NCBI GenBank assembly: GCA_016550415.1
Contig: JABXGU010000049.1
Location: 1-21,433 of the forward strand
DNA length: 21,433 bases
Source: an archaeon
GTDB lineage: Archaea > Asgardarchaeota > Hermodarchaeia > Hermodarchaeales > Hermodarchaeaceae
Direction of reading: 5' to 3'
Position 1 is the first letter of the stretch. Each line of letters opens with the position of its first letter. Below the pieces are notes generated by a model. That model was not told where the DNA came from, did no database searches, and saw only the letters and a program-made list of their open reading frames with translations. Shown piece after piece: positions 4,091-21,433 of the stretch. The position numbers were made by a program, and so were the translations under genes.

Positions 4091-4138
4091 ACTAAGACCT
4101 CATACAATCAATGGAATCTAAATCTGTTAAGATGAGTG

Positions 4139-8364: not shown

Positions 8365-9333
8365 ATGGGAAAACCTCCCACACTCATCCTATATCATCCG
8401 ATAATGGGACAAGAGGGTTATCCTGTTCTCGCAGGTCGTGTTCAACCTGCCTTCGATTATCTCAAAGAGACTGGAACCTTGAAGAGTGAAAAAGTGCGAG
8501 TAGAGGAAGCACAACCAATAGCAGATGAGCTACTACATCAAGTTCATTCTAAAAGTCATATTGCTCAAGTTGGTCGAACTAGCTTTGATAGAGCTTCGCG
8601 CATTTCAGCAGGTGCTGCAGTTCGTGCAGGTGAAGCAGTATGGCAAGGAGAAGCAAGAAACGCCTTCGCCTTTACTGGTTGTGCAGGTCATCATGCCAGT
8701 AGAGATTCAGCTTGGGGATTCTGTTACTATAATAACTCAGCACTCCTCATCCGTCATCTCCGAAACACTCACGGTGTGAAACGCTTCTTCATCGTGGACA
8801 CAGATCCACACTTTGGTGATGGAACCAGAAACATACTGGGAGATGATCCTGATGTCTGTCATCTAAATTTCTATGCTAGCTTTGGGGAAGGAGAGGTTTC
8901 AGAGTCAGACCGTAAAGTCGATGTTTCATTCCCTAGTGCGTGTGGCGACATTAGCTTTGTTGAGGCTTTAGAGCGGCTAGCCTTACCGTTAGCGCGACGG
9001 AGTCAAGCTGATATGCTTCTTTGGAATATGGGTCATGATGCCCATAGGGAGGATTATGGTGGGTTCAACCTCTCACTCCGTGCATTCCCTGAAATGGCTA
9101 AGATGCTTGGCAAGATTGCAGATGAGGTTTGTCAAGGACGCTGGGTTGTATTGTTATCTGGTGGTGCAGAAGTACTTGTTGCCCGTCATGCGATATCCAG
9201 TATAATCAGGAACCTAGCGGAATTATCTCCCCTTCCCCAAGATACTGAGGAGGAACCATCACTTGAATCTGCAGAGACAAAGCAATCTGCTCAAGAAATC
9301 GTTGAAAAAATAATAAAATCACTTGGACTATAG
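8365..9333 (+). CDS. Histone deacetylase-fold protein (arginase/deacetylase superfamily), atypical active site
   Basis: A 322-residue cytosolic protein of the HDAC/acetylpolyamine amidohydrolase family. Visible landmarks are the His pair GHHAS (H109, H110), GFCYYNN (118-124), the zinc site DTDPH (D145, D147, H149) and the third ligand in GHDAH (D225). The usual glycine-glycine-tyrosine motif near the end reads LLSGGAEVL (G266, G267, A268), so the transition-state tyrosine is replaced by alanine. The family removes acetyl groups from lysine, polyamines or other amides; with this change activity may be weak or directed at another substrate. The C-terminal tail (about 285-322) is acidic. No strong ribosome binding site precedes the ATG. 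It converges with the RING-like gene, 13 bases apart. Confidence 0.85.
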   Translation: MGKPPTLILYHPIMGQEGYPVLAGRVQPAFDYLKETGTLKSEKVRVEEAQPIADELLHQVHSKSHIAQVGRTSFDRASRISAGAAVRAGEAVWQGEARNAFAFTGCAGHHASRDSAWGFCYYNNSALLIRHLRNTHGVKRFFIVDTDPHFGDGTRNILGDDPDVCHLNFYASFGEGEVSESDRKVDVSFPSACGDISFVEALERLALPLARRSQADMLLWNMGHDAHREDYGGFNLSLRAFPEMAKMLGKIADEVCQGRWVVLLSGGAEVLVARHAISSIIRNLAELSPLPQDTEEEPSLESAETKQSAQEIVEKIIKSLGL

Positions 9334-9346
9334 AATTGAATGGTTC

Positions 9347-9802
9347 CTAGCTTTCGCCCACCTTCTCCCACGTTACCCACTTACCGTGTGAACGACGTAC
9401 GAGAACAAGCCCATATTGTCGCCAAATTTCTTCTCGAGTGAGTGATTCATCATCAAGTGGTAATGGTTGTAGTGGCTGTGTTGATACGGGCGCAGTTGGT
9501 TTGGTATAGAAGAGACTGTCAATGAGTGCTCCTACACGTCCTTGCTGATATTGGTCTTTGACGAAGATTAGTATTCGTTCTGAGGGAATATCTGCCGGCT
9601 GTATTTGATGGTGAGAGACACCTTGACTGAAGGAGGGACATGTTCCGCCCATTGTTGTTCTAACCATTTGGAGGCATCTGGGGTCAATGAAGAATTGGCA
9701 ACGAAGGCACTGCTGCCAGCCTGCATGTATTGCTTCCTCAAGGGTTGTCCTTGTTCCACAGGCAACACAGGAAATTCCAACTGTTGATAGATCGAGTTTC
9801 AC
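9347..9802 (-). CDS. RING-like zinc-binding protein of the SMC operon (candidate E3-type or Nse1-RING-like)
   Basis: A 151-residue protein, last gene of the four-gene SMC operon; its GTG start overlaps the previous stop by four bases (GTGA), with GGGGGTGA five bases upstream. The N-terminal half is a binuclear treble-clef or RING-like zinc domain with C12-x2-C15, C32-x2-C35, C43, C55 and histidines at 64-65; an aspartate (D40) sits where the paralogue encoded at 15770-16156 has a cysteine. The two proteins align over about 55 residues with nearly identical spacing. A segment RILIFVKD (76-83) recalls the hydrophobic-acidic motifs of the Ubl operon. The C-terminal part (about 110-151) is a separate small basic/aromatic region. 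RING-type proteins recruit charged E2; here an E3-like role or a structural role like Nse1's RING is inference. Confidence 0.7.
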   Translation of the reverse strand: MKLDLSTVGISCVACGTRTTLEEAIHAGWQQCLRCQFFIDPRCLQMVRTTMGGTCPSFSQGVSHHQIQPADIPSERILIFVKDQYQQGRVGALIDSLFYTKPTAPVSTQPLQPLPLDDESLTREEIWRQYGLVLVRRSHGKWVTWEKVGES

Positions 9803-10449
9803 TCTGTTTCACCCCCTTCAGATGTAGAAGTTGAGGTGCTGGCTAGGAAAATTGTTGCAGCATTGGCTATAGCTTGACGTCTTTCTTCATCGAATTCTAG
9901 TTCTGTGCGGGGACCATAGGAAATGCGGCTAGTGGCGCGAATGATGTAGCCAAGATGGCTAAGGCGATAGAGAATTTTATCAAGTTGGTAACGGGAAATC
10001 CGACCTCGGGCAACCAATACTGATTCTAAATCCTTAATGCGTATTTGCTGGAGTTTGCGTTGAGTTTGAGAAGCTTCAATAGTGGCAATAATTACACCGA
10101 GTACAGCATATTCCGGATCGGATAGTTCGCTAGGAACTCCGTAAAGAGTACGGATGCAATAACGAGCTTCTCTACCCAATCTGTACTCAACTAGTTCAAG
10201 TCCCAATGGTGTGATTTCTTGTCGAAGTAAATCGAGGATTCTATCCAATCCACTGCGTGTAGTGTGTAGTGATTCGATTAGAGCCTGCCTAGTAACTCCA
10301 ATGCAGAGACGCCCTTCTTCGTCTCGATATCGGGTTGTAAGAGCAGCGAATAGTTGTCCTAGCAGATGCCGCTGTTCCAATTCTTCGCCACTGTCAGACT
10401 CGGGAGAAGAGACTGGCCTTTCATTGGAATCAGGAGGCTTGGCAGCCAC
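9799..10449 (-). CDS. Tandem winged-helix protein resembling Nse3/MAGE and Nse1 (SMC complex subunit)
   Basis: A 216-residue protein with a disordered acidic N-terminus (1-25) and two winged-helix-like units. Unit A (about 28-105) ends in LGLELVEY and YCIRTLYG, recalling the end of MAGE winged helix A. Unit B (about 110-195) ends in ISYGPRTELEF, close to the GPR motif at the end of MAGE/Nse3 winged helix B. These subunits bind the kleisin of Smc5/6. ScpB and MukE also have tandem winged helices but lack this GPR signature as I know them. GTG start overlaps the kleisin-like stop (TAGTG), with GAGGTG upstream. Its place between a kleisin-like gene and a RING-like gene fits an Nse4-Nse3-Nse1 order. 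The homology is inferred from motifs, not from an alignment search. Confidence 0.6.
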   Translation of the reverse strand: MAAKPPDSNERPVSSPESDSGEELEQRHLLGQLFAALTTRYRDEEGRLCIGVTRQALIESLHTTRSGLDRILDLLRQEITPLGLELVEYRLGREARYCIRTLYGVPSELSDPEYAVLGVIIATIEASQTQRKLQQIRIKDLESVLVARGRISRYQLDKILYRLSHLGYIIRATSRISYGPRTELEFDEERRQAIANAATIFLASTSTSTSEGGETE

Positions 10450-11252
10450 TAACTTTGCACCTCCTCACGTTTTTCCACCTCTATTGCTACTGCAGCAAAC
10501 AGGAGATCCTCCATATCCTTGGTTTTAGGAGAACGGAAGATTATGGTGTTTTTTGAAACAAAGGCTGCTGGAAGCTCTTCATCTCTAATCATTTGGCTCA
10601 AAAGGTCCAGTTCCCAATTAGTGAGCAGGGAAGACAACTCCTGCAAAGTAAATCGCTTTCCCTGAAGCCGAGTTGCAAGCTGAGAGCGGCGTGTTTCCAA
10701 TTTATCGATGGGTAGTTGCCAATACTCGACCCTGTGTTTGGCAAGTGCGGAACGATCATCACGTGTGGGTGCATCATCACTCTCCAGAGGAGCATCCTCC
10801 TTTGGCAAATCTAAAGGAGGAGTGGTAGCTTCTCGGCTTACTAGGAAGACCAAGGGAGAAGCACGGCGCTTCACTTCAAAAGCAAATTGACCAATCCATT
10901 CCTCAGGAGTGATTTTGGGAGACGCAAAGTGAGCATCACGTCGGTGTTGCATTTGCGCTAGATCTAGGTAGAAACGACCATCCAAGACTCGCTCCCATGG
11001 TGTTTCAAGAAAGCGGTAGACATCAGCCACTTCTTCGCGGTCAATCTCAGATTCTTTTATTTCAACCACTTCATGCTCTTTGAGCGCCACATCATATTTC
11101 TTTGTCAAAGTCCAAAGCATAACCACTTCAGCCTTGGTCATTGGTGGAGTTCTCGAACGACGAGGATTCACACCTTTACTGGGACCTGAAGGGGATTGAG
11201 AGGCATCATCACCTTTTGTAATAGAGTTTCTTCGCCGTTTGCCATTTTTCAT
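10449..11252 (-). CDS. Kleisin-like subunit of the SMC complex (inferred)
   Basis: A 267-residue protein encoded directly after the SMC gene with a one-base stop/start overlap (TAATG). The first 35 residues are basic and disordered. A helical region follows (about 38-135) that could be the SMC-neck-binding part, then an acidic proline-rich linker (about 143-170). The C-terminal domain (about 178-240; LPIDKLETRRSQLATRLQGK, FTLQELSSLL) looks like a winged helix, the part of kleisins that binds the SMC head. This N-helical, linker, C-winged-helix layout and the operon position are what point to a kleisin (ScpA, MukF or Nse4 type). Sequence similarity to a named kleisin is not obvious by eye. Probably coupled translationally with both neighbours. 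Confidence 0.55.
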   Translation of the reverse strand: MKNGKRRRNSITKGDDASQSPSGPSKGVNPRRSRTPPMTKAEVVMLWTLTKKYDVALKEHEVVEIKESEIDREEVADVYRFLETPWERVLDGRFYLDLAQMQHRRDAHFASPKITPEEWIGQFAFEVKRRASPLVFLVSREATTPPLDLPKEDAPLESDDAPTRDDRSALAKHRVEYWQLPIDKLETRRSQLATRLQGKRFTLQELSSLLTNWELDLLSQMIRDEELPAAFVSKNTIIFRSPKTKDMEDLLFAAVAIEVEKREEVQS

Positions 11253-14152
11253 TAGCTTTCCACCTGTCCCTTAACTAGAACTATGTGGTGCATTGAGGAA
11301 GGTATCTGAAGACCGACTGTGGTGGGTGCCATTAGCAGAAATTGAGGATCTGTTGGCAGATTCTCACCACTAAGCTCGAGTGCACGCTGCACAACACTAA
11401 GTACAGCAGCTCGACTTGCTTCATCCAATCTCTGTGTAAATTCATCGATTACATGAAGTGGACTTTTTGCCAGGGTATGAAGTGCAAGGATGAAGGTTTG
11501 CGTACTTAATACTCGTTCGCCCCCTGACATGTTGTCATATGTTCGCCAAGCACCTTGACGATTAATGGCAATCTGTACATGAAGTTCAGCTCGGCTTGGT
11601 TCATCAGGATATCGTATGGTAAGCCGAACCTGTTTTAGAAAATGACTTAGCAACTGGTTCATACGATGATTCAGTGTCTCCATTGTTTTCTCAAGGTGTC
11701 GACGCCATTCAGTGAGCCGACGCTGTACATCCGTCATGAGATTCGCTAGATGACGACGACGTTCTTCCAAATAACTGCGAAGTTGGCTGACAAGTTTCTC
11801 TTGTTCCTCATAGGCCATCTGGTCCTGTTCCGTTGCAGGAATTGTTTCAATCATTGCCTCTACACGTAGTCGTTCATCCCTAACCTCATCAGGAGAACGG
11901 ACCTTGAAAGGACGTGGACCATGCTTGGAGGCAGTTTCTCGGTGACTCTTTAGCTGCTCAGTAAGACCTTGAAGTTCATCATCTCGTTCTTGAAGTTCTC
12001 GTGAAAGACGTTCGACTTCAGCCTCTCGACGAGAACAACGAAAGTCCAACCGTCTTATTTGTTCATCAACTTTCAGAAGACGTGAGGATATTGGTTCGAT
12101 ATCGGTATTGAGTTTCTGGAATTCCTGACTATAAGCATCTAATTCTTCATCGAGAACAGCGATTTGATTTTGAAGATCATCAGCCCGTCGCCTTAAGTTT
12201 GATAAGACTAGATTTCGATCCTCATCTGAAGCAGTGGCAGATTGTGTTTCCTGGAGAATTTGTAATTGGGAACGAATATCACTAATTTCAGAATTGAGTT
12301 GGACACGGTCACGGGTAATTTTTGCTTCTTCTACACGAAGTTCTTGCAGTTCACTGAGAATATCTCGTGGGTCTTGAGATAAACCAACCTCATGGAGAGG
12401 AATGCCAAGGGGTACTGTTACGGGCAAGGGGGGACGGGTGAAGGCACCAACACGCAAATAGTGGCTTGAACCATCGCTGGTGATAATATTGCCATTTAGT
12501 TCTTTAGCTGCATCAGCAAGAAGATTGGGATCTGCAGATGCCTCTGCAACAGCAGTATTTACAACACGGCTGAGGAATACTACGGCACCAGGGTCACCTT
12601 GGAGTAAATCAACAGCCCACCCACGTATTGGGGGTTTGACACGGGGACGAGAGCGAGGTTCCATTTCCTCAGAATCGAGGCGAGCTACAACCAAATTGGG
12701 TTTCTCATAGGACCAAAGTTTATCGAAGAGTTGCTTCGCCTCAGAGAAGGCTTCTCGATTTAATGCAAGGAATGCATAGGTGTAGCGTCCAAGAGCTAGT
12801 TTAACTGCAGTCTCAAAGCGTTCTTGTCCCCGTTTCATCCGGATAATTGTGAAAATTGGACCAACCACAGACCTGCCTGAACCTGTTTTATCAAGTTCTC
12901 TACGAAATTGAATACATGCTCTCAGAATTTGCTCTTCACGTCGGGGGAACCTTTGTGGTTCAGAGGCAAGTTCCTCCTCTGTGGCATCTATTCGAGTGCT
13001 TAGTTTTAGCAATCGGTCATCTAATCCATCACGTTGGAGCATGAAATCCCTTAATTCCTCGCGAAGAACCTCATCTTTAGCTGAGGAGGCTCTAGCACCT
13101 CTGGATTTTGATTTTCCATATTTGGCGATTTGCTCATTGGTATCTGTAAGGTCACGTTCAAGACCTTGGCGCAAACCACGGGCTTGCATCTGTTTATCTC
13201 GGATGGATTGTAGGGATTCTCTTGCAGCTGTTCTTTTTGCTTGAAGATCCTGTCTTCTTGCATCGAGTACAGTCCGTTGTTTATTCAGTTTATTGAGCTG
13301 AGTGCGCTCTGCTTCCAAATCATTTTGCAGTGCATCAGTCAAGGATTTCAACTGATCATGAAGCTGTTCACGGTATGCAATTTCTGCCCAAGCTGCTTCA
13401 ACTACGAGATTCTTTAGGGTTTCTTGGAGTTGCTGCTTTTTCTGGTAAGCATCAAAAGCGGCTTTAAGAACTTGAAGCCGTTGTTCCTCATGACGAATAC
13501 GGTGCTGAAGAGGAGTAACATTGGCCTGGGCTTGAATGACAAGCAAACGTGCTTCTTCCAGTTTCTCCATCCAATCCTTCAAACCAGTCTCGCTGAGAAG
13601 TGTTTCAAACTTCCGACGAGGAGATTGGGAGGCAAATCTGTCTAGAGTCTCAGCCTCTGTGACTGCAAGGGGCGTGTGTCCGAAAACTCCTGCAACTTGA
13701 AAGAGCTGCCTAATATCTTGTCGTGAGATAGGACGATTACCAACAGTTCGTCGTTCATTTACCCAATATGAGATAACATTACTTGGAAGAATACGAAGAC
13801 GAATGGAAACCCTATCATTGTCAAGTAACCGATTAACCTCATTGTCAGGACTTTGCAGAATACGCCGTCCATCAATTCGGAAATTGTTTAGCACCAAAAT
13901 AACTTCAGCATGTTTGCCAAAACGCCCAATGAAGGCAGAATTCCGCTGGCGCTGCGCCCGTCTAGAATCAAAGCCAATTGCCAGTAGTAGGGCATCTAAA
14001 ATGAGTGTTTTGCCACTACCGTTGCATCCTGTCACTAAAATAATTGGAGTACGGTCCAAAGGAATTGTTGTATCTCGATGGATGACGAAGTTGATTAAAC
14101 GTATACTATTGAATATCAGGTGCGATGTTGTAGAAGTTGTCACCCTTGTCAT
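11252..14152 (-). CDS. SMC-family ATPase with Smc5/6-like motifs
   Basis: A DNA-organising ATPase of about 966 residues. Numbering from the first possible start (TTG 14182), Walker A is GCNGSGKT (52-59). A coiled coil runs to about 420, an SMC hinge follows (about 430-590; GPIFTIIRMKRGQERFETAV), then a second coiled coil. The signature is MSGGERVLSTQTFILAL (885-901) and Walker B PLHVIDEFTQRLD (908-920). The SGGER-x2-ST-x2-FIL spacing, the DEF after Walker B and the Q three residues on resemble Smc6 and Smc5 rather than Smc1-4, whose Walker B reads LDEIDAALD. There is no CxxC hook, so it is not Rad50. ATG 14152 is preferred because TTG 14182 has no ribosome binding site; neither start is ideal. 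First gene of the minus operon. Confidence 0.85.
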   Translation of the reverse strand: MTRVTTSTTSHLIFNSIRLINFVIHRDTTIPLDRTPIILVTGCNGSGKTLILDALLLAIGFDSRRAQRQRNSAFIGRFGKHAEVILVLNNFRIDGRRILQSPDNEVNRLLDNDRVSIRLRILPSNVISYWVNERRTVGNRPISRQDIRQLFQVAGVFGHTPLAVTEAETLDRFASQSPRRKFETLLSETGLKDWMEKLEEARLLVIQAQANVTPLQHRIRHEEQRLQVLKAAFDAYQKKQQLQETLKNLVVEAAWAEIAYREQLHDQLKSLTDALQNDLEAERTQLNKLNKQRTVLDARRQDLQAKRTAARESLQSIRDKQMQARGLRQGLERDLTDTNEQIAKYGKSKSRGARASSAKDEVLREELRDFMLQRDGLDDRLLKLSTRIDATEEELASEPQRFPRREEQILRACIQFRRELDKTGSGRSVVGPIFTIIRMKRGQERFETAVKLALGRYTYAFLALNREAFSEAKQLFDKLWSYEKPNLVVARLDSEEMEPRSRPRVKPPIRGWAVDLLQGDPGAVVFLSRVVNTAVAEASADPNLLADAAKELNGNIITSDGSSHYLRVGAFTRPPLPVTVPLGIPLHEVGLSQDPRDILSELQELRVEEAKITRDRVQLNSEISDIRSQLQILQETQSATASDEDRNLVLSNLRRRADDLQNQIAVLDEELDAYSQEFQKLNTDIEPISSRLLKVDEQIRRLDFRCSRREAEVERLSRELQERDDELQGLTEQLKSHRETASKHGPRPFKVRSPDEVRDERLRVEAMIETIPATEQDQMAYEEQEKLVSQLRSYLEERRRHLANLMTDVQRRLTEWRRHLEKTMETLNHRMNQLLSHFLKQVRLTIRYPDEPSRAELHVQIAINRQGAWRTYDNMSGGERVLSTQTFILALHTLAKSPLHVIDEFTQRLDEASRAAVLSVVQRALELSGENLPTDPQFLLMAPTTVGLQIPSSMHHIVLVKGQVES

Positions 14153-14316
14153 TTTCTCGAATAAAACTCCCTGCGCACTCAATCAGATAAACAGGAATTA
14201 GTCTCACAAATAGTTCTGCTAGCTCCAATTATATTTGCCATATAAACTTTGGTGCTTCATTTTTATTAGTTAAGTTAAAGTGGATGTAGATGTATCAAAA
14301 AAATTAGGTGAACTGA
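14153..14316. promoter_or_regulatory. Divergent promoter region between the SMC operon and the Ubl operon
   Basis: This AT-rich gap separates two operons that start back to back. On the plus strand CATATAAAC (TATAAA at 14241-14246) is a TATA candidate about 70 bases before the Ubl start. On the minus strand the overlapping stretch reads AAATATAAT (about 14227-14235), about 75 bases before the SMC ATG. Overlapping promoter elements would allow joint control of both arms. AGGTGA at 14306-14311 is the Ubl ribosome binding site. No clear palindromic operator is visible in the gap itself. Confidence 0.45.
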
Positions 14317-14637
14317 TTGAGTAGTGAAAAAGGATTCTGGCGATCAATCATCGTTGATGTGGAACCCCGACAGAAGGAATTCCGTATAGGAATTGATGAA
14401 GAGACCCGTGTTGAAGAAGTGATTAGAACCCTAGTCACTCAGGCACGGGATGAAGGTGTTAACATCGACGAATGGGCTAAAACAAAAATCGGAGAGCAGC
14501 GCCCAGAGTTTGTTCTCATCCGAAAAGCACCAGAACCAACTCGGCTTAGCCCCACAGCATCTTTTGGTGAACTAGAGCCCAAGGTTGCTGATGATGAGAT
14601 GTTCCTCCTCGATGTTGTACCAGAAGTCGGTGACTAA
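14317..14637 (+). CDS. Ubiquitin-like beta-grasp modifier protein
   Basis: A 106-residue protein with the beta-grasp order: strand 1 (SIIVDVEP, 10-17), strand 2 (KEFRIGIDE, 20-28), a long helix (RVEEVIRTLVTQARDEG, 31-47), an insertion, strand 3 (EFVLIRKAP, 64-72), then LSPTASFGELEPKVADDEMF and a last strand LLDVVP (97-102). The LSPT-x-SFGEL and ADDE-MFLL pattern matches the end of ubiquitin, YukD and related Ubls. The tail is PEVGD: a single glycine (G105) followed by one aspartate, so a C-terminal cut would be needed to expose glycine. As first gene of an operon with E2-like and RING-like genes it is the likely conjugated modifier. TTG start with AGGTGA five bases upstream. Confidence 0.78.
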   Translation: MSSEKGFWRSIIVDVEPRQKEFRIGIDEETRVEEVIRTLVTQARDEGVNIDEWAKTKIGEQRPEFVLIRKAPEPTRLSPTASFGELEPKVADDEMFLLDVVPEVGD

Positions 14638-14642
14638 AAAAT

Positions 14643-14690
14643 AGCATTTGTCAAATGTAAATGCACTATGGCATGATACATAAAATATGC
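14643..14690 (+). promoter_or_regulatory. Inverted repeat and TATA-like box before the E2-like gene
   Basis: The gap between the Ubl and E2-like genes holds CATTTG-T-CAAATG (14645-14657), a perfect 6-base inverted repeat around one base, nested within GCATTT...AAATGC (14644-14664). About 20 bases on lies ACATAAAATATGC (14679-14690), a TATA-like box about 25 bases before the E2 ATG, which would give a nearly leaderless transcript. This could be a second promoter with an operator inside the operon. No T-run follows the repeat, so a terminator is less likely. Confidence 0.35.
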
Positions 14691-14709
14691 AATAAAGGCT
14701 GAGTGAGTA

Positions 14710-15492
14710 ATGAGGCGTCCAGTGTTTTCACCAGAACTTTTCAATGCACGAGTGGAAACGCAGATTCAATCATTCTTTGATGCAATGAATAACCTCTATG
14801 GTCGAAAGGGTTGGAACCCTGAACCTCCAAGACGCAATGATACAACTTGGAGTAACACCGATTTCACTGTGGAAATCACTGAGAGGTACCAAGATGGAGC
14901 ATATAAACGAATACAATTTACTATGCGTAACCTGCCCAGTTATTCCCAAAGACCCTCCAGCCCAACTAGCATAAGAGAAATCAGGTATGAACACATCTTT
15001 GTTTTCGATCTGCCCCGTGAATATCCTCAGCATATTGGTATGATTCGTCCCACTGCCTTGACCCCCCTCTACCATCCTCGATTATCTTCCAGAGGCACTG
15101 GACCTGCTTGCTATTCTGTGCGAGGAGAATTGGATCGCATTCTTGAAACTCTTCCATTCTTTGTATTATTGAAACCTGATCATGTTGAGCCGCCATCCAG
15201 GTTTGCTTCTGATCATGGACTCAACAGTGCAGCCATGGCTTGGTATGAACAGAACATTGAGGGCATTGTTAACACGCTTGACCGTCTTTGGGATGAACGT
15301 CACCAACAACTTACTCGTCATAGTCATGATAGAGCAAGAGATGAGCCACAAAGAGGGCGAGTAAAAATCCTCGATTCAACACCGTCTTCATCAACGACTG
15401 GTCAACGAAAACCACGTATTCTAGATACTGAATCAGAAGGAAAATCACACCGTGTAAGAATCATTGAGGATGAAGAAGCTGACAATGATTAA
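14710..15492 (+). CDS. E2-like (UBC-fold) conjugating enzyme with motif-bearing acidic tail
   Basis: A 260-residue protein. Residues about 10-185 read as a UBC fold: N-terminal helix, strands (DFTVEITERY, YKRIQFTMRN), the segment FDLPREYP (99-106), then YHP (121-123) and GPACYS with C134, in the same order as the YP, HPN and catalytic Cys of E2 enzymes. Helices follow (GELDRILETLPFFVLLKPDH, then a C-terminal helix). C134 is the only cysteine in the protein, which supports it as the thioester site. The HPN asparagine is replaced (HPR). The tail (about 195-260) is charged and disordered and holds three related motifs: RVKILDS (217-223), KPRILDTES (234-242) and RVRIIEDEE (248-256). No clear ribosome binding site. 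It should take Ubl from the E1-like protein. Confidence 0.75.
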   Translation: MRRPVFSPELFNARVETQIQSFFDAMNNLYGRKGWNPEPPRRNDTTWSNTDFTVEITERYQDGAYKRIQFTMRNLPSYSQRPSSPTSIREIRYEHIFVFDLPREYPQHIGMIRPTALTPLYHPRLSSRGTGPACYSVRGELDRILETLPFFVLLKPDHVEPPSRFASDHGLNSAAMAWYEQNIEGIVNTLDRLWDERHQQLTRHSHDRARDEPQRGRVKILDSTPSSSTTGQRKPRILDTESEGKSHRVRIIEDEEADND

Positions 15493-15509
15493 GAGGTGTC
15501 ACTTATTCG

Positions 15510-15773
15510 ATGTCTCAAGAACCTCCATCAAAAGACAAAGATGAAGAAGAATCAAGCCCGCCTCATACAAAAGAAAAACGAGACAAAACAGATATTCGTG
15601 AAGCAATTGAATCAGAGGAAGTTGAGCAGGCGGACAAGACGAGACGGATTATCGTATTGGAGGAAAGAGAGATTCCCTTTGTGGTGGAGAAACCCCCAAA
15701 CTTCTCCCCTAATTTCAGAATACGCATCCATCGGATACGTAACCAAGAAGAACTTGGGAAGGATAAGGAATGA
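15510..15773 (+). CDS. Short charged, probably disordered protein of the Ubl operon
   Basis: An 87-residue protein that I do not recognise. The first 45 residues are strongly charged (MSQEPPSKDKDEEESSPPHT) and likely disordered. The motif RRIIVLEERE (45-54) follows, similar in style to the hydrophobic-acidic motifs in the E2-like tail and the RING-like tail. The end is basic and strand-like (NFRIRIHRIRNQEELGKDKE). It lies 17 bases after the E2-like stop with AGAGGTG eleven bases before ATG, and its stop overlaps the next ATG (ATGA), so it is a real operon member. An adaptor or scaffold role between E2-like and RING-like proteins is speculation. Confidence 0.65.
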   Translation: MSQEPPSKDKDEEESSPPHTKEKRDKTDIREAIESEEVEQADKTRRIIVLEEREIPFVVEKPPNFSPNFRIRIHRIRNQEELGKDKE

Positions 15774-16156
15774 GTGTTCAAGCCACCCAAATGACATGTG
15801 CTATCTGTGATAAACAAGTTACTCTAGAGATAGCTCGACAAGACTGGTGGCTTTGCACAATTTGCGGCAGCTATGTTTGCCCACAATGTTATATAATATT
15901 CCGAGAAAGTGGACAAGATTTTTGTCCGGGAACTATTGTGCGTGGTGTTGAACAGCATTTACCTCATTTCACCCGATTTCTTGCTCCTCGCGCAAATGCA
16001 TCGCCAAATGCTGGAGAACAACCAACTGTCGCTATACTTGGAGATGTCCGCCGCCGTACACCCCTCCCTAGAGGAGGCAGAGTTATAATTCTAGGCGACG
16101 CTGACCCTGAAAGAAACAATGAGAGCCAAGCCACAGGAAACGACCATGACAGTTAA
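15770..16156 (+). CDS. RING-like zinc-binding protein of the Ubl operon (candidate E3)
   Basis: A 128-residue protein whose first 63 residues carry a full binuclear zinc pattern: C10-x2-C13, C29-x2-C32, C37-x2-C40, C52 and H63. The spacing and residues such as TLE, FCP and RGV-x2-H match the zinc protein at the end of the SMC operon, so the two are paralogues. The pattern resembles RING-type treble clefs, which recruit E2 enzymes. The tail is disordered and contains PTVAILGD (85-92) and GRVIILGDAD (103-112), related to the motifs in the E2-like tail. Start ATG overlaps the previous stop. Most likely the E3-like partner of the E2-like protein; ligase activity is inferred, not visible. Confidence 0.7.
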   Translation: MSVQATQMTCAICDKQVTLEIARQDWWLCTICGSYVCPQCYIIFRESGQDFCPGTIVRGVEQHLPHFTRFLAPRANASPNAGEQPTVAILGDVRRRTPLPRGGRVIILGDADPERNNESQATGNDHDS

Positions 16157-17723
16157 TCTTCCCATTCAAATGGCGATAGCGGCACCATCAAAATCCAATG
16201 ACCTACCAGCAGTAAATCCTGGAGAAGAGGTCAAAATCACACTCACCCGCACATTTGGTGGCCAAAGTGATCGATATGACGCCGGAGAATTGCTTGTTAC
16301 TGATCCTTTTGGTGTCTTAATCACAAAAATTCCCTTTAGCTTTGGAGAATATACTCGCGGTCAATTCAGGTTTCATCTTGGTAAACACAATTTATCTGGC
16401 ATCTATCAGGTCATCGTCAGCTTCAAAGGGAATAGAGGTACGAACACCCCCACCAAAACGACAATCTATGATGATACATCTATTGATGGAGAGATTTTTG
16501 GCTCCTTTTTACTAAAAGGAGGATACCCATCCATCGTAACACATCGTGTGACATATGAAGCAAAGATTACTAACAAATCCAGTAACCCGCTCAGACATAT
16601 TCAAATGTTCATTGCTGTCCCTCCTCCACTGCCACCCCGCCAAGAAGTTCTAGATTTACAAATCAGACCAGCTAGTGGCAGTCAGGCCAATGACTTATCA
16701 GGGAATAACTGGGTGCACTTTATCCATGATGAGCTTCCTCCACTATCGCATATCACATTTGGGTATACTGCTCTGATTCGGAGTCGCTCAGTCAGATATT
16801 CGTTGCCAGCAACAACAACGGATTTTCACATTCCTGAGAATATTAGGGATTATACCAAACCCGAACTGTTTATCGATTCTCATCACCACCTGATTAAGGA
16901 CCTAGCAAGGGAGATAGCCCGTACAAATCCCTTGCCAGTTCAATTCGTGTCAGCTGCAATGCGCAAAGTGTATAGGATTTTAAAGTATGAGGCACAAAAT
17001 GAGGAAAAAGGAGCAGCCTTTGCTATTGAGAATCGAAAAGGGGATTGCACCGAGTTTGCTGCTCTATTTACAGCCCTGTGCCGAGCGCATGGTCTTCCTG
17101 CTAGACTGCAAGCGGGCTTTGGCTTTGATGGAACCCGTTTCGAAAGACATGCATGGAGTGAGGTTTGGATTCGAGGTCTTTGGGTTCCCGTGGATCCTAC
17201 TTGGCATGGAGTAAGTGGGCTTCTAGGAATTACTAGTCGTCACATTCCTGTTATTATTGGAAATTGGATGTCGAATCGTATCCGTCAAGAATTGAGCTAT
17301 TCTTGGCGTGCCGTTAAAGGAACAGCATCACCGGATTTATCGATAAAATGGAAGGTTCAACAAGTTGCTAGGGTGAGTGCAGAGTCAGGTATGCCCCGGG
17401 ATGCAGCACCAGTTCAACTTCAAGCTAGTGTCCCCGATGCTATTCCTAGGGGAAATACTCTGCAAGTTAATGCCACTGTTACACCCATTCCAAAGGGAAG
17501 GATCCCACTGGAATATATGGCCTTGACAGCCACTATTTCAGATGGCGAAATGGATAATGTGGTAGCAATAGAACCTTTTCCAGCAAATCTTCAAACACCA
17601 ATAAATTTGAGACTAACTGTACCCATGCCAAATTCATTATCAAAGACCACTCTGAGCCTACGTCTGTGGGTTGACCGAAAACCAACTTCTACAGTCTGGC
17701 GAAAAACCATCGGGCTTTTATAG
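16146..17723 (+). CDS. Cytosolic transglutaminase-fold protein with flanking beta-sandwich domains
   Basis: Last gene of the Ubl operon, about 525 residues. It has an N-terminal Ig-like region (about 10-115), a second beta-rich region (about 125-230), a transglutaminase core (about 240-360) and a C-terminal beta-sandwich (about 385-525). The papain-like triad is intact: GDCTEF (C301), RHAWSEVW (H335), PVDPTW (D350). No signal peptide or membrane segment is present, so unlike many prokaryotic relatives it should act inside the cell. The fold makes or breaks amide bonds, so it could remove, process or cross-link the Ubl; that is inference. ATG 16146 is preferred because AGGAAA lies six bases upstream; the frame is also open from ATG 16119, overlapping the RING-like gene further. 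Confidence 0.82.
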   Translation: MTVNLPIQMAIAAPSKSNDLPAVNPGEEVKITLTRTFGGQSDRYDAGELLVTDPFGVLITKIPFSFGEYTRGQFRFHLGKHNLSGIYQVIVSFKGNRGTNTPTKTTIYDDTSIDGEIFGSFLLKGGYPSIVTHRVTYEAKITNKSSNPLRHIQMFIAVPPPLPPRQEVLDLQIRPASGSQANDLSGNNWVHFIHDELPPLSHITFGYTALIRSRSVRYSLPATTTDFHIPENIRDYTKPELFIDSHHHLIKDLAREIARTNPLPVQFVSAAMRKVYRILKYEAQNEEKGAAFAIENRKGDCTEFAALFTALCRAHGLPARLQAGFGFDGTRFERHAWSEVWIRGLWVPVDPTWHGVSGLLGITSRHIPVIIGNWMSNRIRQELSYSWRAVKGTASPDLSIKWKVQQVARVSAESGMPRDAAPVQLQASVPDAIPRGNTLQVNATVTPIPKGRIPLEYMALTATISDGEMDNVVAIEPFPANLQTPINLRLTVPMPNSLSKTTLSLRLWVDRKPTSTVWRKTIGLL

Positions 17724-18206
17724 TTGAATCCCACATGAGCATCTCCGTCAATTATAGCAGAATGGTTTCACCTAGCTTCCACTCCCCCCCAGCACTAAAT
17801 ACTTGAACAGACCCACATAATACCGGTGATGTCTTTGGCTGAAGAAAAACCACCACAAAAACGAAAACCATACCTAAACCCACGCCACTGGCGAATCAGA
17901 TATCAAGCAGGAAATGACGAAATAATTAATATTGAAGAATGAAAGCTACTTTGCCCTTTTCATGATTTGATCCATCAGAGTATACAAGTCATTGACCATG
18001 ATGCAGCTTCTAGAAATTTTGAGATAAAAGTCGAGATTTACGTATCTGCTGGCTTATAATCTGCAGCAATAATTTTTGGTGGAACTCAAAAGAATTTGTA
18101 TTTTGTATCTTACTTGTCTTGCCCTAACTACTCTGATACTATTTGCCTTTATCAGAAGAGTAATAACACCAAGCCCGATTGAAATCTCCTTCTATTGGTG
18201 CTAGCT
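17724..18206. other. Long intergenic stretch with one small candidate ORF
   Basis: About 480 bases separate the transglutaminase-fold gene from the Asp-box gene. I see a C-run (near 17785-17791), a small open frame (17829-17942, listed separately) and no convincing tRNA, hairpin terminator or repeat. The part from 17943 to 18194 is AT-rich and without a recognisable gene; it may contain the promoter of the surface-protein gene, but no strong TATA box stands out. Confidence 0.4.
17829..17942 (+). CDS. Possible 37-residue small protein
   Basis: A short frame from ATG to TGA encoding a basic proline-rich first half (EEKPPQKRKPYLNPRHW) and an ending DEIINIEE that loosely recalls the hydrophobic-acidic motifs of the Ubl operon. 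An AT box AAATACTT around 17800 lies about 25 bases upstream, which would suit a leaderless transcript, and GGTG abuts the ATG. It is too short for confidence and may be chance. Confidence 0.3.
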   Translation: MSLAEEKPPQKRKPYLNPRHWRIRYQAGNDEIINIEE

Positions 18207-19946
18207 ATGCACAGAAGACCATTCATCACAATCTTGCTATTCATAGCTCTCCTCGCAGCCCAGCCACTGCTAATTAGCCCCCAAGGCATAAGAACGGGAT
18301 TCCTGCCTCGCACCTCCTCACGCCCAATAATAGGACAGAGTCAGGTAGATAGTGATGATGTTCGGTTCGGTCACAATGTTCGAATTATAGATCATGCTGT
18401 ACCATATGCGTGGCAAGTGGAGCCTACACTAGCAGTATTGAGTGACGGGCAAATACTTGCTGGATTTAAAGAAGCAGAAAGCGATTCAGGTGGCGGGTTC
18501 CGCGTAGGGTTTTCTTATTCGACGGATAATGGAAAAACATGGAGTCCTAATATCCTTATGGATCCCACTATCCCTGGTAACCGACAATCGGATCCATGGT
18601 TGGTTGCAGATGCAGATGATAATGCATATTTCGTTTTTTTGGACTGGAATGATGTAGCCAGTGGTATTGGTGTTGCGAAGAGCATAGATGGTGGCGTAAC
18701 ATGGTTACCTACAGTTCAGGCAAGTGACACAACAGGCGGATTCGACGACAAAGAGACCGCCTGTATCGATGCTGAAGGTAACATATACATTGTCTGGGAT
18801 TTCTACGCTGATGTTGGTCCAACTGAAATGCGATTTACAAAATCCGTAGATGGAGGTACTACATTCCAGCCCACAACCCCAATACTCACGCCCTATATAC
18901 CCTACATTACTTGTTTTCCTAATGGTACTCTTTTTGTAGCGACAAATGAATGGCAGGGATTGGGTGGAACTCCATCTCAAGATGTGTGGATTAGCCGCTC
19001 TAATGATGGTGGTGTAACATGGTCACCCCAAATTCCTGTAACTCCTTTTGAAGTGGATGAAGTGGGTATTATCGATGTAGTCGATACAGATAGCCAGAAC
19101 AATATTTATGTGGCATATTCAGCGGGCACTTGGGATTTCATTGGGAATATTTCACCTTACGAAAATTACACGGAGATTTACGTTACCAAGTCAACGGATG
19201 GCGGTTTCACCTGGAGTAGTCCAATAATGATTAACAATGTGACAACTGGTGTTCAACGAATGGCGGAAATGCATATTGACGAAACTGATACTATTCATGT
19301 TGCTTGGCTTGATGGTCGTGATGGTGAGTGGAACATTTACTATAGCTATTCTGATGATGGGGGAACTTCATTCCACCCAAACGTTCGTGTAACTAGCGAA
19401 GGAACACCACTCGATTATTGGCGACCAGGCGACTACTTCACAATGCGCACGGGTCCAAACGGAGTCTGTCTTGTCTGGACAGATGGGCGAGGAGAAGATT
19501 TAGATATTTATTTTGCTGCCCAAGACTTTGCTGCTCCGACAGTCACTCATTTACCAGTCAGCCAATGGTGGGTAAATACTCCATTAACACTTACCGTTGA
19601 AGTTACTGACGATGACTATGTTGAAACAGTTTGGGTAGGCTATCGAACCTCTTCTGACAGTGATTTGCGTTATATTCAGTTCGCGAAAATAGCTAATAAC
19701 ACCTATCAAGCAACAATCCCCGCTACTGATATTGTTGGAATCAGCCTTGATTATTCCATTATTGTGTATGATTCAGCTGGGCGAGTTACCCGTCTTCCCA
19801 TTAGTGACGCTGAATGGTTCACAATCGCCCTATTCCCAATTTCCTTCAGTATGTTGCTCGTCATTGTCAGCTCTATAGCAGTGATTACTGTGGTAGTGAT
19901 TTTTTCAGTGTGGTTTCTCCGACGTACTCCTTCATCGCGACCTTAG
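18207..19946 (+). CDS. Membrane-anchored Asp-box (BNR, sialidase-like beta-propeller) surface protein
   Basis: A surface protein of about 579 residues. It begins with a basic N-terminus and signal peptide (RRPFITILLFIALLAAQPLL). A beta-propeller domain (about 50-440) follows with at least six Asp-box repeats: STDNGKTW, SIDGGVTW, SVDGGTTF, SNDGGVTW, STDGGFTW and SDDGGTSF. Next comes an Ig-like domain (about 450-530), and a C-terminal membrane helix (SMLLVIVSSIAVITVVVIF) with a basic end anchors it with the propeller outside. Asp boxes occur in sialidases and in non-enzymatic propellers; I did not identify the sialidase arginine triad, so the activity is open. ATG 18207 is preferred (TTGGTG six bases upstream); the frame is also open from TTG 18195. 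No evident link to the Ubl genes. Confidence 0.82.
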   Translation: MHRRPFITILLFIALLAAQPLLISPQGIRTGFLPRTSSRPIIGQSQVDSDDVRFGHNVRIIDHAVPYAWQVEPTLAVLSDGQILAGFKEAESDSGGGFRVGFSYSTDNGKTWSPNILMDPTIPGNRQSDPWLVADADDNAYFVFLDWNDVASGIGVAKSIDGGVTWLPTVQASDTTGGFDDKETACIDAEGNIYIVWDFYADVGPTEMRFTKSVDGGTTFQPTTPILTPYIPYITCFPNGTLFVATNEWQGLGGTPSQDVWISRSNDGGVTWSPQIPVTPFEVDEVGIIDVVDTDSQNNIYVAYSAGTWDFIGNISPYENYTEIYVTKSTDGGFTWSSPIMINNVTTGVQRMAEMHIDETDTIHVAWLDGRDGEWNIYYSYSDDGGTSFHPNVRVTSEGTPLDYWRPGDYFTMRTGPNGVCLVWTDGRGEDLDIYFAAQDFAAPTVTHLPVSQWWVNTPLTLTVEVTDDDYVETVWVGYRTSSDSDLRYIQFAKIANNTYQATIPATDIVGISLDYSIIVYDSAGRVTRLPISDAEWFTIALFPISFSMLLVIVSSIAVITVVVIFSVWFLRRTPSSRP

Positions 19947-20035
19947 CAATTTAGTTAACGTCAGTGCTGAACTATTCGAGTTATAGCCAACGGTTTCATG
20001 TTACCGCAAGAAGGCTAATGGAACGTTCAAAGGAG

Positions 20036-20932
20036 CTACAATGTTTCCCCCATTCTAGATTTAGATTGCATTTTCTTGTGCAGAGTCCTACAAAAAATCT
20101 CTGAACATGCCCGATTTGGCATAATTAATCCACTTTGAGATTTGTGTTGACGAAGATTATAATGGATGAAGCGTCCAATTGCTGGCTCAAGACCCTCCTG
20201 CCATTTGCCAGTTATACGCCACTGTTTTAAGCCCACTAAGACACGAGTCGCTTCCCAAGCCATTATTGCACCCACAACGGAGGTTACGTAGCTTATCATG
20301 GGAAATCGTGGAAGTGTGTCCACAAAGAAGGGGTCACAATGAGTACGAACCTGGTTTGCTAAGACATGGTCAACAAAATCCTGACTCCAAGAACAAACCA
20401 TACAGGCCGTATGGGGTGGTGCTAAAACTTCAACTGATACAAAGTCCATTCCCATAGCACCATTGACAATTAGACGAGGGGGCTGAAGGCTCAGATTTTT
20501 TGCATTGAGTAAGAATCGGGCATAATGGTTGTCCACACCAACAAGAACCAGATCAACGTTCCACACCTTGTCAGGAGCTTCCTGAATTGGTAAGGCATAG
20601 GGTTCAACAATAGTATCAGTAGCTAGTTTTGGCAAGCGTTCTGCAATTGCATCCACTTTGAACTTGCGTTCATGATCTTCTGGTCGGAAAAATACACATC
20701 GGTTCAAATTAGAAGCAGCCACTTTGTCAGGGTCAACTAGAATGATTTTACTCACACCTAGTAATCCGAGATTCTTGCAGACTTCATTTCCAACGGCACC
20801 AGCACCCACCATAAGAACTTTGGCAGCTTGAACTCGTTTCAGGTTATCAGAGCCAAGCCAACGACGTGTCCGGTCATGGCGGTCGCGTTCGAAGAAATCC
20901 AATTCCAAGGGAGTCGGTGTTTCCTTGGGCAT
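20036..20932 (-). CDS. E1-like (ThiF/UBA-type) Ubl-activating enzyme
   Basis: A compact 298-residue enzyme that should adenylate the Ubl C-terminus. Nucleotide-binding GAGAVG (43-48) is followed by LVDPD (D67) and NLNR (R78, the arginine used across E1/ThiF/MoeB), then K92 and GVDNHYAR (D134). Zinc cysteines appear as C177-x2-C180 with a possible second pair C276 and C281. C199 (RTHCDP), before the helix VTSVVGAIMAWEATRVL, is in the region of the catalytic cysteine of related enzymes. No ubiquitin-fold domain is present at the C-terminus, so E2 recruitment must differ from that of large eukaryotic E1s. It follows the JAMM gene after nine bases with GGGAAA before the ATG, forming a JAMM-E1 operon. 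Confidence 0.85.
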   Translation of the reverse strand: MPKETPTPLELDFFERDRHDRTRRWLGSDNLKRVQAAKVLMVGAGAVGNEVCKNLGLLGVSKIILVDPDKVAASNLNRCVFFRPEDHERKFKVDAIAERLPKLATDTIVEPYALPIQEAPDKVWNVDLVLVGVDNHYARFLLNAKNLSLQPPRLIVNGAMGMDFVSVEVLAPPHTACMVCSWSQDFVDHVLANQVRTHCDPFFVDTLPRFPMISYVTSVVGAIMAWEATRVLVGLKQWRITGKWQEGLEPAIGRFIHYNLRQHKSQSGLIMPNRACSEIFCRTLHKKMQSKSRMGETL

Positions 20933-20941
20933 ATTTTTTCC

Positions 20942-21433
20942 CTACATTTCTGTCTCTTCTGGTGGCTTGGGTACATCGGGACGATATACGCAGTAATCAA
21001 CACGTTCTAATTTCAAGGGTGCTTCAACCTCAAAACGCTGAAGCATGAACACCTTGAAGATTCGACTTATTGGATCGATGAGGAAAAAGACATTCCCTTC
21101 AGCGTAGAATGGGGTTTTGAAGAAGGTGCGCATATCGATGCCTGAAAATTCTGGATCTGTTCCGAAGGGATGAGAGTGCCAAAGCCCAACTACGCGTGGT
21201 GCTTGAGGGCTGGAACCATATCGGTCGTGAAGTGCTAGTCGATATTCCAATATTCCTTCAGGAGTAAAACGGGCATAAGCTGTGCTAGATTCAACCCGTC
21301 CTGTAGCCCAGTCAGTTACCCGTACATACTTTACATTGTTCCAAGAGCGACGGAATCCAAGAATTACACCAAGTGCTTCCCTTGGAGGTCTTTTTCTGGC
21401 TGCCCTCCGGCAAAAATGGAAGATATCCCAATA
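20942..21433 (-). CDS. JAMM/MPN+ metalloprotease (partial, N-terminus outside the window)
   Basis: The frame is open to the right edge, so the first residues are missing; 163 residues are visible. The JAMM elements are all present: the glutamate in EALGVILG (E19 of the visible part) and HSHPFGTDPEFSGID (H86, H88, S97, D100). The spacing between the second histidine and the serine is eight residues, one more than the usual seven, while SGID matches Rpn11 and CSN5. Such zinc isopeptidases cleave Ubls from targets or trim Ubl precursors. Here it could remove the terminal aspartate of the Ubl (tail GD) and recycle conjugates. It is encoded directly upstream of the E1-like gene. A TTG start at 21250 would split the motif and is rejected. 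Confidence 0.85.
   Translation of the reverse strand, partial: YWDIFHFCRRAARKRPPREALGVILGFRRSWNNVKYVRVTDWATGRVESSTAYARFTPEGILEYRLALHDRYGSSPQAPRVVGLWHSHPFGTDPEFSGIDMRTFFKTPFYAEGNVFFLIDPISRIFKVFMLQRFEVEAPLKLERVDYCVYRPDVPKPPEETEM

What the first reader, a model, noticed from the sequence alone, without database searches (positions are those of the whole stretch)
9347..21433. Ubiquitin-like conjugation cascade physically linked to an Smc5/6-like complex
Within 12 kb the sequence shows a Ubl, an E2-like protein, two RING-like proteins, an E1-like protein and a JAMM protease. Back to back with the Ubl operon is a four-gene operon for an SMC ATPase, a kleisin-like protein, a tandem winged-helix protein and a RING-like protein. 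In eukaryotes Smc5/6 is the SMC complex that carries SUMO (Nse2) and ubiquitin (Nse1) ligase subunits. A shared divergent promoter suggests the archaeal modifier works on, or is recruited by, the SMC complex. Eukaryote-like ubiquitin operons and archaeal SMC relatives are known separately; I cannot check whether this linkage has been described.
Basis: partly seen in the sequence, partly recalled or inferred. Interest (0 to 1): 0.95.

Follow-up and report, generated by a model that had tools for sequence, protein, structure and literature searches.

The report
Archaeal SMC complex with ubiquitin-like tagging

Summary
The window is Hermodarchaeota-like (Asgard). A 4-gene operon (SMC ATPase, kleisin candidate, winged-helix KITE candidate, RING-like zinc protein) is divergent from a Ubl operon (Ubl, E2, small acidic protein, RING, transglutaminase), with E1 and JAMM nearby. 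Models give a beta-grasp Ubl and an E2 with invariant Cys134. The broad SMC profile is closest to Smc6 (about 155 bits, next class 110); canonical Asgard SMCs show the opposite. Of 227 Asgard genomes, 19 carry this Ubl, the same 19 the E2, and all 19 the SMC. In 14 Ubl and SMC lie within 5 kb, in 3 contig ends cut the operon, in 2 they are apart. Hermodarchaeota are divergent; Heimdallarchaeota have one co-directional SMC-kleisin-KITE-RING-JAMM-E1-Ubl-E2 operon. Thirty other genomes match the SMC without the Ubl. The Ubl ends at Val-Gly followed by nothing, short varying tails or longer extensions, as in a processed precursor. SIM-like motifs recur in E2, small protein and RING. Best reading: an Smc5/6-like complex with its own modifier. 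The kleisin is unproven and no biochemistry exists. Two key SMC-evolution papers could not be read, so novelty is provisional.

The parts
11252..14182 (-). SMC ATPase, 976 aa, Smc6-like; Walker B DEFTQRLD, signature MSGGER
   Evidence: Pfam SMC_N 7.6e-19; PDB profile searches, best = Smc6; motifs
10449..11252 (-). kleisin candidate, 267 aa, second gene of the SMC operon
   Evidence: place, size and conservation; no profile hit to a known kleisin
9799..10449 (-). KITE candidate, winged-helix protein, 216 aa
   Evidence: 49 proteins at E<=0.001, itself included; winged-helix, MksE and Nse1 Pfam hits in some alignment members
9347..9802 (-). RING-like zinc protein (ZNF), fourth gene of the SMC operon; C11, W28, C31, C34, C42, C54, H64 invariant in 17 of 17
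   Evidence: alignment A9; weak RING hits
14183..14316 (.). 134-bp divergent intergenic region between SMC and Ubl
   Evidence: sequence; same divergent layout in L001, L002, L003, L005, L006, L007, G004 (L100) and G071 (L043)
14317..14637 (+). Ubl modifier, 106 aa, beta-grasp; C-terminus ...VVPEV-Gly105-Asp106
   Evidence: model m690e23e18bbc; V104 and G105 invariant in 12 of 12
14629..14634 (+). Gly105 (predicted mature C-terminus) and the one-residue tail Asp106
   Evidence: tail varies in homologues
14710..15492 (+). E2-like enzyme, 260 aa; HPR motif 122-124 and invariant Cys134
   Evidence: alignments A2, A4, A12; model mc4ace6c4b351 matches UBE2K and Ubc9
15109..15111 (+). codon of predicted catalytic Cys134 of the E2
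   Evidence: invariant in 24 of 24 aligned members
15361..15372 (+). SIM-like core 1 in the disordered E2 tail (VKIL)
   Evidence: 100 cores in 53 tails against 14.6 +- 3.5 in shuffles; tail pLDDT under 50
15412..15423 (+). degenerate SIM-like core 2 in the E2 tail (PRIL)
   Evidence: alignment A2; not counted by the pattern
15454..15465 (+). SIM-like core 3 in the E2 tail (VRII, then acidic)
15510..15773 (+). small acidic protein (SMALL), 87 aa, one SIM-like core IIVL plus PPNFSP block
   Evidence: found in 15 of 15 loci examined, by a pattern that includes the core
15770..16156 (+). RING-like protein, 128 aa, with two SIM-like cores (VAIL, VIIL) in its tail
   Evidence: zf-UDP RING 2.5e-5, below cut-off; alignment A16; tail cores 14 against 1.1 +- 1.0
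16119..17723 (+). transglutaminase-fold protein with Cys310, His344, Asp359 motifs
   Evidence: Transglut_core 8.6e-21; triad motifs; match in 18 of 19 Ubl genomes
20036..20932 (-). E1-like ThiF enzyme; candidate catalytic Cys199; cysteines 52, 79, 177, 180, 276, 281 also invariant in 8 of 8
   Evidence: ThiF 1.2e-34; alignment A14
20942..21433 (-). JAMM metalloprotease, 5' end beyond the window; E19, H86-S-H88, S97, D100 invariant in 8 of 8
   Evidence: Prok-JAB 1.7e-8; alignment A13

Best explanation
This Asgard archaeal locus holds an SMC ATPase most like eukaryotic Smc6, with three partner genes, next to a complete predicted ubiquitin-like conjugation pathway, and the two modules are likely one machine in which the SMC complex would direct the tagging of chromosome-bound proteins. 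Shown here: gene content, Smc6 affinity by profile, predicted Ubl and E2 folds, invariant residues at the expected active sites, and conserved co-occurrence and linkage. Inferred steps: (1) the JAMM (or the transglutaminase) trims the Ubl after Gly105; (2) the E1 activates the Ubl and holds it on a cysteine, probably Cys199; (3) the Ubl passes to E2 Cys134; (4) SIM-like motifs in the tails of the E2, the small protein and the RING protein hold the Ubl, much as SIMs hold SUMO; (5) the RING-like fourth subunit of the SMC operon, encoded beside the KITE candidate as the RING domain of Nse1 stands beside its winged helices, brings charged E2 to DNA-bound SMC rings, so that SMC subunits or nearby proteins are tagged; (6) the JAMM and transglutaminase reverse this.
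For: Of 227 Asgard genomes, 19 have this Ubl, the same 19 have this E2, and all 19 have the SMC. JAMM at E<=1e-10 in 18 of these 19, the 19th (G066) having a JAMM fragment at a contig end; specific E1 (E<=1e-90) in 18 of 19; transglutaminase in 18 of 19; RING at E<1e-20 in 16 of 19. The JAMM was in 0 and the specific E1 in 0 of the 3 Ubl-less SMC genomes tested. Ubl and SMC lie within 5 kb in 14 of 19; in 3 of the other 5 (G012, G069, G070) contigs end inside the operon. Layout is divergent in Hermodarchaeota and co-directional in Heimdallarchaeota. Smc6 affinity; canonical Asgard SMC gives the reverse; tree. Folds. Gly-ended Ubl with varying tails. Motifs.
Against: 30 genomes match the SMC without Ubl or E2, 25 of them in the G019-G045 range; in the nine such neighbourhoods that I read the four-gene operon is complete, so the SMC complex can do without this modifier. 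In G066 and G067 the Ubl-E2 genes are on other contigs beside unrelated genes, not explained by contig ends. Genomes are related MAGs, so the independent lineages are about three. No kleisin profile hit. The RING-like proteins score weakly as RINGs. With the narrower SMC profile the lead of Smc6 over a prokaryotic Smc head (5xei) is only 80 against 75 bits. With single sequences, human SMC6's C-terminal part does not separate this family from canonical SMC, and its N-terminal part scores the window's own SMC at -8.7 bits. The best VIA-align rows for the Ubl model are a monooxygenase subunit, not a modifier: the fold alone does not prove a modifier.
Confidence: 0.62

Rival explanations
1. The two modules are separate housekeeping units that are neighbours by inheritance and work on different targets.
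For: The SMC family lives without this Ubl in 30 genomes, with a complete operon in the nine read; split in G066 and G067; a histone deacetylase gene is an equally constant neighbour in Hermodarchaeota.
Against: Linkage survives a change from divergent to co-directional order at about 30% SMC identity; JAMM is next to ZNF even in G066, where the Ubl is elsewhere; the JAMM was in 0 of 3 Ubl-less genomes tested.
Confidence: 0.15
2. It is an antiviral or anti-plasmid defence system, an SMC sensor with a Ubl effector, akin to Lamassu or Wadjet combined with a Bil or CBASS-type Ubl cascade.
For: PADLOC hits: LmuB 3.3e-20, mad3 1.2e-19, JetC 1e-11, E1-E2 2.5e-15, JAB 2.6e-6.
Against: Those hits fall on the shared ATPase, ThiF and JAMM domains; none of the ten scanned proteins hits a nuclease or effector of those systems apart from JAB-carrying fusion models, though several have no hit at all; the Ubl is 81-88% identical between the window and six Hermodarchaeota loci, slow for a defence gene.
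Confidence: 0.13
3. The Ubl-E1 pair is a sulfur carrier or small-molecule system and the E2-like protein is not a conjugating enzyme.
For: ThiF is the best E1 family; the Ubl lacks Gly-Gly; its best VIA-align rows are toluene monooxygenase subunits.
Against: E2 fold with HPR and invariant Cys134, JAMM and RING-like genes present, sequence beyond the Gly varies freely.
Confidence: 0.05

Closest known systems
Eukaryotic Smc5/6 complex (Smc5, Smc6, Nse4 kleisin, Nse1 and Nse3 KITEs with RING on Nse1, Nse2 SUMO ligase)
   Same: SMC nearest to Smc6; winged-helix and RING-like partner genes; a Ubl pathway at hand; SIM-like motifs. Nse2 activity is raised by SIMs (PMC8636563, title and start of abstract).
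   Different: One SMC gene and one KITE candidate in each operon read, RING in a separate gene, own E1, E2 and Ubl beside it; no Nse2 noticed (not searched for).
Caldiarchaeum and Asgard ubiquitin operons (PMC5654768, PMC9192718; passages read)
   Same: Ubl, E1, E2, small RING and JAMM in one cluster; the Caldiarchaeum JAMM clips its pro-ubiquitin.
   Different: The Caldiarchaeum modifier ends in Gly-Gly; PMC9192718 links Asgard ubiquitin genes to ESCRT genes; the word SMC occurs 0 times in either main text. The one here ends in a single Gly and sits with an SMC operon.
[quoted passage not shown] original not held)
   Same: Probably the same SMC clade; not compared sequence by sequence.
   Different: PMC9389158 has 0 occurrences of kleisin and ubiquitin.
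UFM1 and ATG12 (single-glycine Ubls; from memory)
   Same: One C-terminal Gly; UFM1 is recalled to end in Val-Gly after trimming of two residues.
   Different: Not compared by sequence or structure here; the E2 here has an HP motif like canonical E2s.
Bacterial Ubl operons (Bil, BUB, CBASS-type; from memory and PADLOC)
   Same: E1, E2, JAMM and Ubl together.
   Different: I recall no SMC complex in them.

Membership tests
Smc5/6 complex | SMC ATPase of the Smc5/6 branch | tested here: met
   Profile bits Smc6 150-155, Smc4 110, prokaryotic Smc 5xei 103, Smc3 92, Smc5 80 (with the narrower profile Smc6 80, 5xei 75); canonical Asgard profile gives Smc2 440, Smc3 418, Smc4 408, Smc1 375, Smc5 86, Smc6 not in the 60 of 95 rows shown; tree SH-aLRT 97 with human SMC6, exact place unresolved, long branch
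Smc5/6 complex | two different SMC subunits, Smc5 and Smc6 | tested here: inconclusive
   each operon read has one SMC gene; 47 of 49 genomes have one match or pieces of one, G066 and G067 have weaker extra matches; at most three candidates per genome were scored and no Smc5 query was used
Smc5/6 complex | Nse4-type kleisin | tested here: inconclusive
   no hit to Nse4 or ScpA; kleisins diverge fast
Smc5/6 complex | KITE subunits Nse1 and Nse3 | tested here: inconclusive
   one winged-helix gene only; SMC_Nse1 0.0022 in 1 and MksE 0.003 in 3 of 20 members, none for the window's own protein
Smc5/6 complex | RING fused to a KITE (Nse1) | tested here: not met
   RING-like protein is a separate gene next to the KITE gene in the window and in the operons read
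Smc5/6 complex | Nse2 SP-RING ligase on the Smc5 arm | not tested
   no search for SP-RING was made beyond the locus
Ubiquitin-like conjugation cascade | beta-grasp modifier | tested here: met
Ubiquitin-like conjugation cascade | UBC-fold E2 with active-site Cys | tested here: met
Ubiquitin-like conjugation cascade | E1 with adenylation domain and Cys | tested here: met
   ThiF 1.2e-34; seven invariant Cys, among them Cys199; that Cys199 is the catalytic one is inferred
Ubiquitin-like conjugation cascade | covalent attachment to proteins | not testable with these tools
   needs biochemistry
Canonical ubiquitin or SUMO | C-terminal Gly-Gly | tested here: not met
   V104-G105 invariant in 12 of 12
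Lamassu or Wadjet defence SMC | partner nuclease or effector in the operon | tested here: not met
   no nuclease or JetD hit among the ten locus proteins scanned; proteins without any hit are not excluded

The most novel reading that the evidence does not exclude
The partnership of an SMC complex with its own SUMO-like modifier predates eukaryotes: this is the surviving archaeal form of the Smc5/6-SUMO axis, with a SIM-reading single-glycine Ubl, and eukaryotic Nse1 arose when the neighbouring KITE and RING genes of this operon fused.
Probability: 0.22. Interest if true: 0.97.

Novelty: new variant of a known kind. Interest (0 to 1): 0.88.

Why it matters
Why Smc5/6 alone among eukaryotic SMC complexes carries SUMO and RING ligase subunits has, to my knowledge, no known prokaryotic root. 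A locus that ties an Smc6-like motor to a full Ubl cascade in Asgard archaea would give that root and make it testable with about ten proteins expressed in E. coli.

Tried and rejected
Kleisin identity by PDB profile, hhalign against Asgard ScpA, and Pfam: nothing. KITE against ScpB by hhalign: E 0.057; an earlier run gave 0.0071 with partly wrong ScpA and ScpB frames and is discarded. Ubl by PDB sequence profile: no hit at E<=1. E2 by PDB profile: 0.031 at the HPN..C site, with acyl carrier proteins next, so the fold was tested by model. Human SMC6 as single queries: its N-terminal part scores most of this family above four of the five canonical SMCs, but the window's own SMC at -8.7 bits; its C-terminal part does not discriminate. 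Bacterial promoter and terminator scan: no more than in shuffles. SIM-like counts: three of 15 SMALL frames were wrong (window, L007, L080) and the L006 row was the RING frame; one search corrected this but selects SMALL by a pattern that contains the core, so its 15 of 15 is not independent. Related sequences are not independent in any shuffle test. A hypergeometric P of 2e-15 for Ubl within SMC genomes ignores kinship, and I do not lean on it. Longer sequence behind the Ubl Gly could in part be misread frames on short contigs. UFM1 and ATG12 were not in the 50 rows shown for the Ubl model, which excludes nothing.

Papers: the ten searches that ran listed none whose title or abstract start describes an SMC operon beside a Ubl cascade in archaea. 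Van Hooff 2025 (Cell Rep 44:115855; seen only as a reference in PMC13142630) and Yoshinaga and Inagaki 2021 are not held, so the link may be in print there. Passages of PMC12993045 did not bear on it.


Full report
What is there. The window carries four minus-strand genes in tight overlap, SMC (11252-14182), a kleisin candidate (10449-11252), a winged-helix KITE candidate (9799-10449) and a RING-like zinc protein, ZNF (9347-9802). Divergent from the SMC across 134 bp are Ubl (14317-14637), E2 (14710-15492), a small acidic protein (15510-15773), a RING-like protein (15770-16156) and a transglutaminase-fold protein (16119-17723). After an unrelated BNR-repeat gene come, on the minus strand, E1 (20036-20932) and JAMM (20942-21433, cut by the window edge). 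The nearest relatives in named records are Hermodarchaeota (tree).

SMC. With several Asgard groups in the profile (13 sequences), PDB scores are Smc6 150-155 bits, Smc4 110, prokaryotic Smc 5xei 103, Smc3 92, Smc5 80. With only Hermodarchaeota and Heimdallarchaeota in the profile Smc6 leads narrowly, 80 against 75 for 5xei. A profile of six canonical Asgard SMCs gives Smc2 440, Smc3 418, Smc4 408, Smc1 375, Smc5 86, and Smc6 not among the 60 of 95 rows shown, that is at most about 82 bits. In a 28-row quick tree, canonical SMCs form one clade (SH-aLRT 99) and human SMC6 falls with this family and two other Asgard sequences (97), though its exact place is unresolved and its branch is long. Some Hermodarchaeota genomes also have an ordinary smc-scpA-scpB cluster (for example G003 contig C18), so this is a second SMC complex there.

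Partners. KITE: winged-helix families, MksE 0.003 (3 of 20 members) and SMC_Nse1 0.0022 (1 of 20), none for the window's own protein. ZNF: conserved Cys/His pattern, weak RING, IBR and C1 scores, clearly paralogous to the Ubl-operon RING (4.6e-13). Kleisin: no sequence support beyond place, size and conservation.

Linkage. Among 227 genomes of the phylum, the SMC profile matches 49 at E<=1e-20, the E2 19 and the Ubl 19; the last two sets are identical and lie inside the first. Ubl and SMC are on one contig within 5 kb in 14 of 19 (G001-G011, G013, G068, G071). In G012 the contigs end between KITE and ZNF, in G069 and G070 between JAMM and E1, so the operon is cut rather than absent. In G066 the SMC contig runs SMC-kleisin-KITE-ZNF-JAMM and is then cut, with Ubl-E2-SMALL-transglutaminase on another contig beside a non-E1 gene; in G067 Ubl-E2-transglutaminase is also on another contig beside other genes. 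Hermodarchaeota have the divergent layout; Heimdallarchaeota (L008-L011, L013, and unnamed L074) have SMC-kleisin-KITE-ZNF-JAMM-E1-Ubl-E2-SMALL in one direction, with a RING-transglutaminase pair about 7-11 kb on in G010, G011, G013, G068 and G069, about 40 kb on in G008, and on other contigs in G009 and G012. RING is found at E<1e-20 in 16 of 19 (weaker rows are mostly the ZNF), transglutaminase in 18 of 19, JAMM in 18 of 19 with a cut copy in G066, specific E1 in 18 of 19. The other 30 SMC genomes lack Ubl and E2, 25 of them in the G019-G045 range; in the nine neighbourhoods that I read (L062-L069, L075) the four-gene SMC operon is complete (in L067 an extra frame lies between SMC and kleisin).

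SIM-like motifs. The E2 tail is disordered in the model and carries repeated cores of the kind [VILM]-x-[VIL]-[VIL], mostly followed by acidic residues: 100 cores in 53 tails against 14.6 +- 3.5 in 1000 shuffles, maximum 27. RING tails, pattern [VI]-x-[VIL]-[IL]: 14 in 8 against 1.1 +- 1.0; RING heads as control 1 against 1.2. The small protein has one such core in the 15 loci examined, though selected it by a pattern that includes the core; by position alone one search found cores in 12 of 15 rows, three being wrong frames and the L006 row being the RING frame. The G066 transglutaminase ends in a similar stretch (by eye). That these bind the Ubl is inference from the SUMO-SIM resemblance.

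Mechanism and verdict. The simplest reading is a Ubl pathway devoted to, or steered by, an Smc6-like SMC complex, with the RING-like fourth subunit as the bridge. What speaks for a functional tie is survival of the neighbourhood through a change of gene order between distant lineages, and JAMM staying with the SMC operon in G066 where the Ubl is elsewhere. What speaks against exclusivity is the Ubl-less SMC group: the SMC complex is the more general part, and the modifier an added or lost layer. In the tree most Ubl-less sequences group with Heimdallarchaeota, next to Hermodarchaeota, but those branches (93, 91) are unstarred; this fits an ancient link with loss, or repeated gain. The complex is predicted to work like Smc5/6 but is not filed as a member: a KITE-RING fusion was tested and not met, and a second SMC, the kleisin and a second KITE were not found.

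Novelty. Asgard ubiquitin operons and archaeal SMC5/6-related SMCs are each known (PMC5654768, PMC9192718, PMC9389158; passages read). I found no paper on the link in ten searches of an open-access library, but the two most relevant SMC-evolution papers were not readable. I rate it a new variant of a known kind.

Noticed in passing
window 8365-9333 (+): A histone deacetylase gene (Hist_deacetyl 5.6e-49) converges on ZNF and is in the same place in 7 of 7 Hermodarchaeota loci; tblastn found none in the six Heimdallarchaeota loci.
   Followed up: partly
window 18195-19946 (+): A BNR/Asp-box repeat protein gene sits between transglutaminase and E1; in L001 and L005 these two are adjacent, so this looks like an insertion here.
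   Followed up: no
window 5717-7702 (-): One protein joins an endonuclease/exonuclease/phosphatase domain, fn3, Big_7 and a lamin-tail domain.
   Followed up: no
genomes G021, G038, G042: No canonical SMC (TIGR02169) at E<=1e-20 although the SMC5/6-like operon is present, so it may be their main SMC.
   Followed up: partly
L072 (G177) 3818-4408 and 8916-12107: A distant SMC of this family (2e-78) with a KITE-like frame (1e-9) about 4.5 kb away and no Ubl match; four of five neighbours scanned have no Pfam family, the fifth is HSP70-like.
   Followed up: no
P0125, P0126, P0131, P0135, P0139, P0140, P0143: Ubl reading frames that continue past the Val-Gly junction into longer sequence, recalling eukaryotic ubiquitin fusions; P0135 and P0140 tails resemble each other, and short contigs make some doubtful.
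   Followed up: partly
L008, L009, L010, L011, L013 downstream flank: Frames that look like aromatic amino-acid ammonia-lyases follow the Heimdallarchaeota operon; name recalled, no family search made.
   Followed up: no
P0030, P0037, P0105: A few close homologues carry other organism labels in their sources (Thorarchaeota, Bathyarchaeota, Odinarchaeota), perhaps mislabelled MAGs.
   Followed up: no
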